Positions 2 through 8,973 of a stretch of 40,877 bases of DNA are shown one piece after another. The stretch is from the NCBI GenBank assembly GCA_022767945.1, contig JALENF010000024.1:1-40877 (forward strand). The letters run 5' to 3'. Each line of letters opens with the position of its first letter. Position 1 is the stretch's first letter. Both the position numbers and the translations under genes were made by a program. The notes under the pieces are model-generated. The model saw only the letters and a program-made list of their open reading frames with translations. It made no database searches and was not told the DNA's origin. This stretch comes from Bacillota bacterium. Its GTDB lineage: Bacteria > Bacillota > Clostridia > Peptostreptococcales > Anaerovoracaceae.

Positions 2-1105
2 GACATCATGCTGGCAGACAGTACTAATGCTCTTAGAGCAGGCTTTACTGCCTCAGAACAGGTTGTAGGGACGACCCTTGACCGCATCTTCAGACAGGTT
101 GAGCAGAGAATTATTATTGCGTCATTTTCGTCCAATGTTCACAGAGTTCAGAAAATTATTGAACTTGCTGCAAAATACGGAAGAAAATTTGCTGTTTCAG
201 GACGCAGTATGGAGAATGTTGTAAGGCTTGCTCAGGAACTTGGATATATGAACATTCCTGCAGGCATGATGGTTGAACTTAACAAGACAAAAAATATTCC
301 TGACAGGGAACTTGTGATCATAACGACAGGAAGCCAGGGAGAGCCTATGTCGGCTCTTGCCAGAATGGCAAACGACGAACACAAGAATGTTCATTTAAAG
401 AAAGGTGACACGGTTATTCTATCATCATCACCTGTTCCGGGAAATGAGAAGGCGGTTGCATCGGTTGTAAACAGACTTTTTGAAAAAGGTGTGAATGTTA
501 TATATAATGACATCGCAGACATCCATGTAAGCGGACACGCGTGTCAGGAGGAACTTAAGCTTATACAGACTCTGATAAAGCCTAAGTATTTTATGCCGGT
601 GCATGGAGAATTCAGACATCTTGTACAGCATGCGGCAATAGCTGAATCCATAGGTATGAGCAGAGACAGAATATTCATCCTGTCTAATGGAGATCAGCTC
701 ACTGTAGATAAGAAATCAGCAACTAAATTCCAGAATGTATGCAGTGCTGAAGATATTCTTGTTGACGGACTTGGAATCGGAGATGTAGGAAACATAGTAT
801 TAAGAGACAGAAAGCAGTTGTCTGAATCAGGACTTATCATAGTTGTTTTTGCTCTGGAAAAGTCAAGTGGAACAATTGTATCCGGCCCTGATATTGTATC
901 AAGAGGATTCGTATATGTTCGTGAGCATGAGGATCTGATTAATCAGGCGAAGGCACTTGCAACAGAGACTATTGAGAAGTGTCTGGCACATAATAATACA
1001 GACTGGAACTCAATAAAAAACAGCGTACGGGATGAAATGAGAAAATTCATCTTCAATCAAACAAAGAGAAGTCCGATTATCCTGCCGATAATCCTGGATG
1101 TATAA
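2..1105 (+). CDS. rnj: Ribonuclease J, 5'-truncated by window edge
   Basis: Frame open to the window edge (..DIMLADSTNA); RNase J motifs LADSTNA, ITTGSQGEPMSAL, PVHGEFRHL, SRGFVYVRE. Confidence 0.95.
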   Translation, partial: DIMLADSTNALRAGFTASEQVVGTTLDRIFRQVEQRIIIASFSSNVHRVQKIIELAAKYGRKFAVSGRSMENVVRLAQELGYMNIPAGMMVELNKTKNIPDRELVIITTGSQGEPMSALARMANDEHKNVHLKKGDTVILSSSPVPGNEKAVASVVNRLFEKGVNVIYNDIADIHVSGHACQEELKLIQTLIKPKYFMPVHGEFRHLVQHAAIAESIGMSRDRIFILSNGDQLTVDKKSATKFQNVCSAEDILVDGLGIGDVGNIVLRDRKQLSESGLIIVVFALEKSSGTIVSGPDIVSRGFVYVREHEDLINQAKALATETIEKCLAHNNTDWNSIKNSVRDEMRKFIFNQTKRSPIILPIILDV

Positions 1106-6411: not shown

Positions 6412-8973
6412 ATGATGAAGAACAACTACTTAACAACAGCTATAGTTGCACATGTGGATGCCGGAAAGACAACTCTGTGTGAAGGCATCCTGTATAAAAC
6501 TGGCATCACACGCACACTTGGACGAGTGGATCACGGTGATGCTTTTTTTGATACACACAATCTTGAAAGAAAGCGCGGTATCACAATATTCTCCAAACAG
6601 GCAGTATTTCCGCTGGGTACCAAAACCGTTACACTCCTTGACACTCCCGGTCATATGGATTTCTCTGCTGAAATGGAGCGAACCCTGGGTGTACTGGATT
6701 ATGCCATCCTGGTTATAAGTGCTCCAGACGGAGTCACGGGACAGGTTGATACTCTCTGGAAGCTTCTGGAGAAATACGATGTTCCGACATTCATCTTTAT
6801 AAACAAGATGGATCAGGCCGGATGTCTCATTGAAAACGTCATGGAGAACCTGCATAAGTGTCTTGGGAACGAATGCGTGCTCTTCAACGAGGAGACAGAC
6901 GAATTCTACGAAAACGCCGCCTCCTGTGACGAAGATCTCATGGAGGAATACTTCGATTCGGGGGTACTGTCAGATGAAAGTATCACACGGGCTGTCAAAA
7001 CCCGCAGAATCGTGCCTTGCTATTCAGGCTCGGCACTCAAAATGACCGGAATAAGTGAGTTCCTAAAAGGAATGGAACGGTTCACGAGCTGTAGCGAATA
7101 TCCTGAAGCCTTCGGAGCCAGAGTCTTTAAAATAACAAGAGACGACAAGGGAGGAAGACTCACCCACATGAAGCTGACAGGTGGAACGCTGTCCGTTAAG
7201 GAAATCGTCGGCGAAGAAAAGATTAACCAGATAAGAATATACAGTGGAACAAAATTTGAAGCCGTAAACACAGCTGAAGCCGGACAGATAGTTTCAGTTA
7301 CCGGGCCGGATGCAACCTTCAGCGGACAGGGACTGGGATTCGAAAATCATGGTGACAAACCCGTTATAGATTCAGTACTTTCATATCAGGTTATCCTCTC
7401 TGAAGATACAGATGTTCACGAAGCATTTGTTAAGCTGAGCCAGCTGTCAGAAGAAATACCTGAGCTGCATGTTTTGTGGAATGATGCGGACGGTTCGGTC
7501 CGAATGAACCTTATGGGTGAAATCCAGGCTGAAATAATAAAAAATATTGTAAGCGACAGATTCGGTTTTGATATCGGCTACAGTCAGGGAACTGTAATGT
7601 ATAAGGAGACTATTAAGGGAAAGTCTTACGGCGTTGGACACTATGAACCTCTTAAACACTATGCCGAGGTACATCTTGCTATGGAGGCACTTCCTGAAGG
7701 AAGCGGTCTTGTGTTTGATACGATATGCAGTGAGGATATTCTGGATCGTAACTGGCAGCGCCTGATTATGACTCATCTTATGGAGAGGGAACATCCGGGA
7801 GTTCTGACTGGAGCACCGATTACTGATATGAAAATCAGCATAGCAACGGGCAGAGCACACATCAAGCATACAGAAGGGGGAGACTTCAGGCAGGCAACCT
7901 ACAGAGCAATTAGACAGGGACTCAGAAGGGCTGAAAATGTGCTCCTTGAACCTTTCTACAGTTATACACTGGAGCTTCCGCCAGATATGGTAGGGCGTGC
8001 AATGTCAGATATTCAGAGAATGTCAGGAACATGTACACCTGACGACCAGACACGTGAGGACATGACAGTAATTACCGGAATCTGCCCCGTGTCTACAATG
8101 AACGGCTATCAGAAAGAGGTTGTTTCGTACACAAGGGGTAAGGGAAGACTTTCATGCATTTTCGGCGGATACATGCCTTGTCACAATTCTGAGGAGGTAA
8201 TTGCAGAGGCTGCCTACAGTCCGGACAACGATGTTGATAATCCGACAGGCTCCATATTCTGCAGTCACGGAGGAGGCACCTTCGTCCCGTGGGATGAGGT
8301 GGAAAAGTACATGCATCTGGAAATGGCTGTTCAGGAAAAGGATATCTATGACTCCGGCGAGGGACTTCCAAGACCTCACAGAAAAGCAGAATATAGTCAG
8401 GCTGAGCTTGATGCTGTCTTTCAGATGACCTACGGGGTCAGCAAGAGAGAGCAAAACCGTTTCAGACGCAGTCCTCGTCTGATTCAGGCGGAACCTTCAG
8501 TACCCGGACCAAAGGTTCAGAGCGGGTACAACAAGAGCGATGCAGAAGAAATACTCATCATTGACGGGTATAATATTATCTTTGCATGGGAAGAGCTTAA
8601 GGAAATGTCAAGTCTGAATCTTGAGGCGGCAAGAGACATGCTTATTGACATACTCAGAAACTATCAGGGGTATACAGGCACAAAGATCATACTCGTTTTC
8701 GATGCGTATAAGCAGAAAGGTGCCTCAGAGCATAACGAAAGCTATGAAGATCTAAAGGTCGTATATACCAGAGAGAACGAGACAGCAGACAGATATATCG
8801 AAACTTTTGTTACCGAAAATGCAAAAAAATACAAAATTACAGTCGCAACCTCTGACGGACTGGAGCAGGTTATGGTATTTGGACAGGGTGCACTCAGAAT
8901 GCCTGCAAGAGAACTCAGAGAGCGAATTATGAATACAAACAGGGAAATTACAGAACTTATTTCAAAAAAATAA
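6412..8973 (+). CDS. TetM/EF-G-like translation GTPase fused to C-terminal YacP/Rae1-type NYN RNase domain
   Basis: G1 AHVDAGKTT, RGITIFSKQ, DTPGHMDF, NKMD; C-terminus EEILIIDGYNIIFAW...EARDMLIDILRNYQGYTG...VFDAYKQKG...VYTRENETADRYIE...VATSDGLEQ...FGQGALRMPARELRE matches the YacP/Rae1 motif order. Confidence 0.93.
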   Translation: MMKNNYLTTAIVAHVDAGKTTLCEGILYKTGITRTLGRVDHGDAFFDTHNLERKRGITIFSKQAVFPLGTKTVTLLDTPGHMDFSAEMERTLGVLDYAILVISAPDGVTGQVDTLWKLLEKYDVPTFIFINKMDQAGCLIENVMENLHKCLGNECVLFNEETDEFYENAASCDEDLMEEYFDSGVLSDESITRAVKTRRIVPCYSGSALKMTGISEFLKGMERFTSCSEYPEAFGARVFKITRDDKGGRLTHMKLTGGTLSVKEIVGEEKINQIRIYSGTKFEAVNTAEAGQIVSVTGPDATFSGQGLGFENHGDKPVIDSVLSYQVILSEDTDVHEAFVKLSQLSEEIPELHVLWNDADGSVRMNLMGEIQAEIIKNIVSDRFGFDIGYSQGTVMYKETIKGKSYGVGHYEPLKHYAEVHLAMEALPEGSGLVFDTICSEDILDRNWQRLIMTHLMEREHPGVLTGAPITDMKISIATGRAHIKHTEGGDFRQATYRAIRQGLRRAENVLLEPFYSYTLELPPDMVGRAMSDIQRMSGTCTPDDQTREDMTVITGICPVSTMNGYQKEVVSYTRGKGRLSCIFGGYMPCHNSEEVIAEAAYSPDNDVDNPTGSIFCSHGGGTFVPWDEVEKYMHLEMAVQEKDIYDSGEGLPRPHRKAEYSQAELDAVFQMTYGVSKREQNRFRRSPRLIQAEPSVPGPKVQSGYNKSDAEEILIIDGYNIIFAWEELKEMSSLNLEAARDMLIDILRNYQGYTGTKIILVFDAYKQKGASEHNESYEDLKVVYTRENETADRYIETFVTENAKKYKITVATSDGLEQVMVFGQGALRMPARELRERIMNTNREITELISKK

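What the first reader, a model, noticed from the sequence alone, without database searches (positions are those of the whole stretch)
6412..8973. TetM/EF-G-like GTPase fused to a Rae1/YacP-type NYN endonuclease
Seen: one uninterrupted 853-aa ORF with GTPase motifs (AHVDAGKTT, DTPGHMDF, NKMD), later EF-G-like domains, and a C-terminal ~140 aa carrying the YacP motif series DGYN, EARD, YQxYTG, VFDA, ENETAD, VATSD, FGQGALR, ARELRE. Known: TetM-type proteins bind the ribosomal A-site region and use GTP. B. subtilis Rae1 (YacP) is a ribosome-dependent mRNA endonuclease acting at the A site. Inference: the fusion may be a self-contained stalled-ribosome sensor and mRNA cleaver, with the GTPase delivering the nuclease. 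If so, automatic annotation as tetracycline resistance would be misleading.
Basis: partly seen in the sequence, partly recalled or inferred. Interest (0 to 1): 0.85.

Follow-up and report, generated by a model that had tools for sequence, protein, structure and literature searches.

The report
EF-G-like GTPase fused to Rae1 nuclease
This gut-type bacterium makes one protein in which a translation-factor-like GTPase carries an mRNA-cutting enzyme; in its class such fusions stand in for the free-standing enzyme (Rae1) and are often mislabelled as tetracycline resistance, but nobody has tested what they do.

Summary
In detail: one 853-aa ORF (6412-8973, +) with EF-G domains I-V and a C-terminal Rae1/YacP NYN domain. 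All G-motif and NYN Asp residues are conserved in 81 orthologues. The architecture is not new: Atkinson 2015 reported Tet-like plus YacP fusions in ten Clostridiales. No functional test was found.

What is added here. (1) In 243 genomes of the class, 89 have the fused NYN and 72 a standalone one; none has both (26 expected). The fusion therefore replaces Rae1. (2) The GTPase is not TetM: it belongs to a strongly supported clade (100/100) sister to the Tet proteins, with its own domain-IV tip and C-terminal extension, and it also exists unfused. (3) The fusion arose once. (4) All 20 standalone Rae1s end in a conserved basic tail; about half of the fusions lack it. (5) RefSeq names some members tetracycline resistance. 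A strain carrying an NYN-less branch member is tetracycline-sensitive (MIC 1 ug/ml).

Best reading: the GTPase docks Rae1 on ribosomes with an open A site, where it cuts mRNA (0.5). Main doubt: a Bacillus cereus-group 'TetM' of matching length truly confers tetracycline resistance, and I could not place it.

The parts
6412..8973 (+). Whole fusion gene, 853 aa (start may be the second ATG, 6415)
   Evidence: orthologues full-length in 80 contigs
6427..7077 (+). G domain (residues 6-222), G motifs AHVDAGKTT, RGITI, DTPGH, NKMD
   Evidence: Pfam GTP_EFTU E 3e-46; D16, K19, T20, T58, D77, G80, H81, N131, K132 and D134 in 81/81 orthologues, H14 in 79/81
7114..7320 (+). EF-G domain II (residues 235-303)
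   Evidence: Pfam EF-G_D2 E 3e-6
7405..7575 (+). EF-G domain III (residues 332-388)
   Evidence: weak Pfam EFG_III below cut-off; helices and strands in the model
7588..7932 (+). EF-G domain IV (residues 393-507)
   Evidence: Pfam EFG_IV E 1e-14
7849..7890 (+). Domain IV tip loop GRAHIKHTEGGDFR (residues 480-493), diagnostic of the 'KHT' clade; TetM-type proteins have YYSPVSTPADFR-like loops
7939..8190 (+). EF-G domain V (residues 510-593)
   Evidence: Pfam EFG_C E 1e-18
8167..8316 (+). C-terminal extension (residues 586-635) shared by fused and unfused KHT GTPases, absent from Tet proteins; conserved C590, H591, C617, H635 (possible metal site, untested)
   Evidence: folded in the AlphaFold model
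8335..8532 (+). Flexible linker (residues 642-707) holding a conserved short helix around ELDAVFQMTYG (663-676)
   Evidence: pLDDT below 50 in 642-661 and 671-707, helix 663-674; motif seen in 63 of 81 fusions by regular expression
8554..8964 (+). Rae1/YacP NYN nuclease domain (residues 715-851), Asp718, Asp764, Asp793, Asp815
   Evidence: Pfam NYN_YacP E 3e-50; all four Asp in 81/81; lacks the C-terminal tail of standalone Rae1

Best explanation
The protein is a one-piece, GTPase-delivered form of Rae1 that has replaced free Rae1 in many Clostridia. The EF-G-like part binds the factor site of a ribosome whose A site is open (paused or stalled), placing the domain-IV tip in the decoding centre. 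After GTP hydrolysis the tip withdraws, and the NYN domain, on a linker of about 80 residues, reaches the exposed A-site codon and cuts the mRNA. The 3' piece is left to RNase J and the ribosome to tmRNA-type rescue. Shown here: domain content, conservation of both active sites, strict either/or distribution with free Rae1, single origin, frequent loss of the Rae1 tail. Inferred: ribosome binding (homology to EF-G/TetM), A-site cleavage (homology to Rae1), order of events and stall sensing.
For: Mutual exclusion: 89 genomes fused, 72 standalone, 0 both, 26.4 expected; 20 further fused genomes in the phylum each carry only that NYN. Own genome and 99%-complete sister have only the fused copy. 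Both states occur inside families f21, f22, f26 and f27. Four NYN Asp and the G motifs persist in 81/81 orthologues and, with variations, in the most divergent ones. GTPase parts form one clade 100/99 and fused NYNs one clade 100/99 apart from one re-split copy. All 20 standalone Rae1s keep a C-terminal LEKxRR-like tail; R166P in that tail inactivates B. subtilis Rae1 (PMC6613710), yet 42 of 81 fusions lack the tail and only 8 of the other 39 keep LE[KE]xR: the GTPase may have taken over docking. Unfused KHT GTPase and standalone Rae1 coexist in 10 of 15 plus 4 of 6 genomes. Rae1 is described as an A-site mRNA endonuclease thought to enter stalled ribosomes (PMC10100781, PMC12320835).
Against: No biochemical data. 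Domain IV and a Rae1 domain could not both occupy the A site, so sequential action is required and unproven. 7 of 21 genomes with an unfused KHT GTPase have no NYN_YacP at all, so the GTPase also works without a nuclease; among non-fused genomes the link between unfused GTPase and standalone Rae1 is not significant (p 0.17). Exclusivity shows replacement, not delivery. The p value ignores relatedness of genomes.
Confidence: 0.5

Rival explanations
1. It is a ribosome protection protein against tetracycline or another A-site antibiotic; the NYN domain is an accessory that clears the mRNA of drug-stalled ribosomes (the reading proposed in 2015).
For: Homology to TetM/TetO. Atkinson 2015 suggests it (PMC4342817). 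The chromosomal 'tetM' Btoyo_0322 of Bacillus toyonensis truly confers resistance (deletion lowers MIC from 16 to 1 ug/ml; cloned copy works in B. subtilis; PMC5209696) and its 647-aa length (307023-308966) fits the unfused KHT branch common in Bacilli (frames mostly about 645-670 aa). TetM loop III tolerates S508A/P509A/V510A (PMC4750697), so a different tip sequence does not exclude the activity.
Against: Separate clade from Tet proteins (100/100). NCBIfam tet_protect 370 bits against a cut-off of 775. Widespread, single-copy chromosomal gene, e.g. 89 of 243 genomes here and 197 of 261 for unfused relatives, in a housekeeping gene block in this window. L. salivarius P1CEA3 carries a member of the fusion branch without NYN on its 194,140-bp megaplasmid (NZ_CP116813.1; branch placement from the UCC118 copy) and has a tetracycline MIC of 1 ug/ml (PMC10778751), although silent tetM genes are also known (PMC5209696).
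Confidence: 0.22
2. It is ordinary Rae1 tethered to a ribosome anchor: the GTPase only raises local concentration on ribosomes, with no stall sensing and no role for GTP hydrolysis in cleavage.
For: Rae1 alone is ribosome-dependent in B. subtilis; exclusivity only says that one replaces the other. One lineage (G209, L015) has a standalone NYN that nests in the fusion clade, so the nuclease can apparently work free again.
Against: All G motifs and the catalytic His81 stay conserved in 81/81, which an inert anchor would not need; loss of the Rae1 tail argues that docking now depends on the GTPase.
Confidence: 0.15
3. The NYN domain processes rRNA or tRNA on or near ribosomes, as once proposed for YacP-like domains, and the GTPase is a maturation or quality-control factor for subunits.
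For: Older prediction for YacP NYN domains quoted in PMC4342817; in B. subtilis rae1 is co-transcribed with and acts in the same pathway as the rRNA methyltransferase gene yacO (PMC6613710).
Against: The only characterised relative, Rae1, cuts mRNA in translating ribosomes.
Confidence: 0.08

Closest known systems
Tet-like protein with C-terminal YacP-like NYN RNase domain (Atkinson 2015, BMC Genomics, PMC4342817)
   Same: Same architecture; reported in ten Clostridiales species
   Different: There filed inside the Tet subfamily and read as a possible resistance mechanism; here it is a sister clade, single origin, very common, and exclusive with standalone Rae1
Rae1/YacP of Bacillus subtilis (PDB 5mq8, 5mq9)
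   Same: NYN fold and all four conserved Asp; about 40% mean identity between fused and standalone NYN domains
   Different: Fused behind a translational GTPase; often lacks the C-terminal tail that B. subtilis Rae1 needs
Tet(M)/Tet(O) ribosome protection proteins
   Same: Five EF-G-type domains, about 30% identity, domain-IV loop of the same length
   Different: Different clade, tip sequence and C-terminal extension; below the NCBIfam cut-off
Unfused 'KHT' GTPases of Bacilli and some Clostridia (some annotated TetM/TetW/TetO/TetS family or translation factor GTPase family)
   Same: Same clade, same type of tip and same C-terminal extension
   Different: End after the extension; no NYN domain

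Membership tests
Rae1/YacP (NYN_YacP, PF05991) | NYN fold with conserved Asp residues | tested here: met
   Pfam E 3e-50; D718, D764, D793, D815 in 81/81; PIN-like strand/helix order in the model
Rae1/YacP (NYN_YacP, PF05991) | C-terminal LEKxRR-type tail (R166 needed in B. subtilis) | tested here: not met
   Absent in the window protein and in 42 of 81 fusions; present in all standalone copies checked
Rae1/YacP (NYN_YacP, PF05991) | Ribosome-dependent mRNA cleavage | not testable with these tools
   needs biochemistry
Tet(M)-type ribosome protection proteins | Score above the curated family cut-off (NF012153, 775 bits) | tested here: not met
   370 bits; a true Tet protein from the same survey scores 1001
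Tet(M)-type ribosome protection proteins | Falls inside the Tet clade | tested here: not met
   Tet rows are one clade (100/96), KHT rows another (100/100) (repeated)
Tet(M)-type ribosome protection proteins | Confers tetracycline resistance | not testable with these tools
   Indirect evidence points both ways: PMC10778751 against, PMC5209696 possibly for
Translational GTPase of the EF-G (EF2) superfamily | Domains I-V with intact G motifs and catalytic His | tested here: met
Tet-YacP fusion family (Atkinson 2015) | Tet-like GTPase with C-terminal YacP NYN domain in Clostridiales | tested here: met

The most novel reading that the evidence does not exclude
A bacterial counterpart of GTPase-coupled mRNA surveillance: one polypeptide in which a translational GTPase recognises ribosomes with an open A site and, by GTP hydrolysis, hands the site to its own tethered endonuclease that cuts the mRNA. 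It would be the main A-site nuclease of a large share of Clostridia, and unfused KHT GTPases would play the same partner role for free Rae1 elsewhere.
Probability: 0.3. Interest if true: 0.85.

Novelty: new member of a known kind. Interest (0 to 1): 0.6.

Why it matters
If right, many gut and soil Clostridia destroy mRNA on paused ribosomes with a factor that joins GTPase recognition and cutting in one chain, functions that elsewhere sit on separate partners. It also matters for annotation: RefSeq lists members as tetracycline resistance proteins, which can inflate resistome counts, while relatives in Bacilli may hold real but silent resistance. The either/or pattern with Rae1 and the lost tail give a clean, cheap experiment.

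Tried and rejected
Horizontal or mobile origin: gene context is housekeeping and not conserved outside the window's family; two 'phage' records with the fusion were checked and one holds host housekeeping genes such as a tRNA synthetase and feoB, so they look like mislabelled host contigs. Coexistence of fused and standalone NYN in three genomes: the second hits score 21 bits over 47 residues, below the cut-off, and were rejected. My first GTPase tree misread four reverse-strand EF-G rows and was discarded. The cereus-group TetM could not be found: published primers matched no fetched locus, so its clade stays open. Key Rae1 papers (Leroy 2017, Condon 2018) are not in the library. No Rfam element in the window. 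I did not test whether the rlmB-sigH gene pair lost yacP in fused genomes, nor the possible metal site (no model coordinates available).

Full report
WHAT IS THERE. The window (from a 1.57-Mb, 86% complete metagenome-assembled genome) holds an uninterrupted 853-codon gene at 6412-8973. Pfam finds the EF-G domain series and, behind a linker, a Rae1/YacP NYN domain at 715-851. By sequence the GTPase half matches TetO/TetM over 8-590 and the NYN half matches B. subtilis YacP crystal structures over 713-849. AlphaFold (40 sequences, mean pLDDT 78.5) gives five EF-G domains, a small folded extension after domain V, a disordered linker 642-707 with one conserved helix at 663-674, and a PIN/NYN-like C-terminal fold. 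Its best structural matches are EF-G structures.

PRIOR ART. The architecture is published: Atkinson 2015 states that Tet proteins from ten Clostridiales species acquired a YacP-like NYN RNase domain and suggests a new resistance mechanism (PMC4342817). I found no functional study. So the combination itself is not new; its meaning is open.

CONSERVATION. In 81 full-length fusions the G motifs, catalytic His81 and NYN residues Asp718, Asp764, Asp793 and Asp815 are invariant (His14 in 79 of 81). Even the most divergent fusion (G198, 37% identity) keeps ADTGKTT, DTPGH, NKCD, VDAYN, VFDAY, ETAD and VTSD. Selection keeps both activities.

REPLACEMENT OF RAE1. Of 243 genomes of the class, 161 hold a NYN_YacP domain: 89 in a frame joined to the GTPase (some cut by contig ends), 72 standalone (for 7 of these the place was not printed; they lack a fusion-type GTPase match), none with both; 26.4 would be expected if independent. 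Three apparent doubles were sub-threshold matches. Twenty more fused genomes from the wider phylum each have only the fused copy. The two states alternate within families f21, f22, f26 and f27. Genomes are related, so the Fisher p (2e-18) is indicative only.

NOT A TET PROTEIN BY DESCENT. The careful tree separates EF-G, Tet proteins (100/96) and a third clade (100/100) made of the fusions and of unfused GTPases of about 650 aa; fusions are one subclade (100/99). I call the third clade KHT after its domain-IV tip, HxKHTEGGDFR, which replaces the YYSPVSTPADFR-type loop of TetM. All KHT proteins aligned share an extension after domain V with C590, H591, C617 and H635 (window numbering; a few exceptions) that Tet proteins lack. 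The tetracycline-protection model of NCBIfam scores 370 bits against a cut-off of 775, whereas a true Tet protein from the same survey scores 1001. Unfused KHT GTPases are ordinary chromosomal genes in Bacilli: 197 of 261 genomes of one order have a match, nearly all of this type. Ligilactobacillus members fall inside the fusion branch but have no NYN, and in G209 a standalone NYN nests inside the fused NYNs, so the fusion seems to have come apart at least twice.

THE TAIL. All 20 standalone Rae1s end in a basic LEKxRR-like tail (the B. subtilis tail is). In B. subtilis, R166P in this tail is a loss-of-function mutation (PMC6613710). Forty-two of 81 fusions, the window's included, stop before it, and of the other 39 only 8 keep LE[KE]xR. 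A part that free Rae1 needs is dispensable when the GTPase is attached. This fits the GTPase having taken over docking; it is inference.

TETRACYCLINE. RefSeq names the Agathobacter rectalis fusion 'TetM/TetW/TetO/TetS family' and the Monoglobus one 'translation factor GTPase family protein'. L. salivarius P1CEA3, whose 194,140-bp megaplasmid carries a Ligilactobacillus member so annotated (NZ_CP116813.1), has a tetracycline MIC of 1 ug/ml (PMC10778751). Against this, a chromosomal 'tetM' of the Bacillus cereus group confers real resistance and can be silent in its own host (PMC5209696); its 647-aa length fits the unfused KHT branch, but I could not obtain its sequence. TetM also tolerates changes at the loop tip (PMC4750697). 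The tetracycline reading is therefore weakened, not excluded.

SURROUNDINGS. The gene starts 10 bases after a CNNM/CorC-type transporter gene and is followed by spoIIIAA; upstream lie RNase J, EF-P, mltG, an O-methyltransferase and a U32 peptidase, all on the same strand. This block is kept in close relatives only. No Rfam element such as an antibiotic leader was found.

MECHANISM. [quoted passage not shown] TetM and EF-G put domain IV in the same A site (established knowledge). The simplest joint model is sequential: GTPase binding tests and clears the A site, then the tethered nuclease enters. Steps shown: both active sites intact, replacement of Rae1, tail loss. Steps inferred: binding, order, stall recognition.

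Noticed in passing
window 8-1105 and 1499-2092: RNase J (C-terminal part) and EF-P genes lie within 6 kb upstream of the fusion on the same strand; in B. subtilis loss of rae1 suppresses an efp mutant (PMC6613710). The block is conserved only in the window's own family.
   Followed up: partly
L183 2980-4914 and 32 other Ligilactobacillus plasmid records: Megaplasmid gene labelled TetM/TetW/TetO/TetS is an NYN-less member of the fusion branch of the KHT clade; a carrier strain is tetracycline-sensitive.
   Followed up: yes
L181, L182 (MT835563.1, MT835514.1): Unverified 'Bacteriophage sp.' records carry the fusion; L182 holds host housekeeping genes (feoB, tRNA synthetase, glycerol kinase), so the labels look wrong.
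   Followed up: partly
L015 1483-2004: Standalone NYN of genome G209 nests inside the fused NYN clade, while G209 has an unfused KHT GTPase on another contig: the fusion seems to have split again.
   Followed up: partly
window 8398-8439: Conserved short helix in the disordered linker (consensus about [KE]ELxxIFxRTYG), a possible docking motif of unknown partner.
   Followed up: partly
window 8167-8316: C590, H591, C617 and H635 (75-81 of 81 fusions) in the extension after domain V could form a metal site; several unfused relatives end in MHC.
   Followed up: no
L117 and L118 (genome G106): Two close copies of the unfused KHT GTPase in one genome next to a single standalone Rae1.
   Followed up: no
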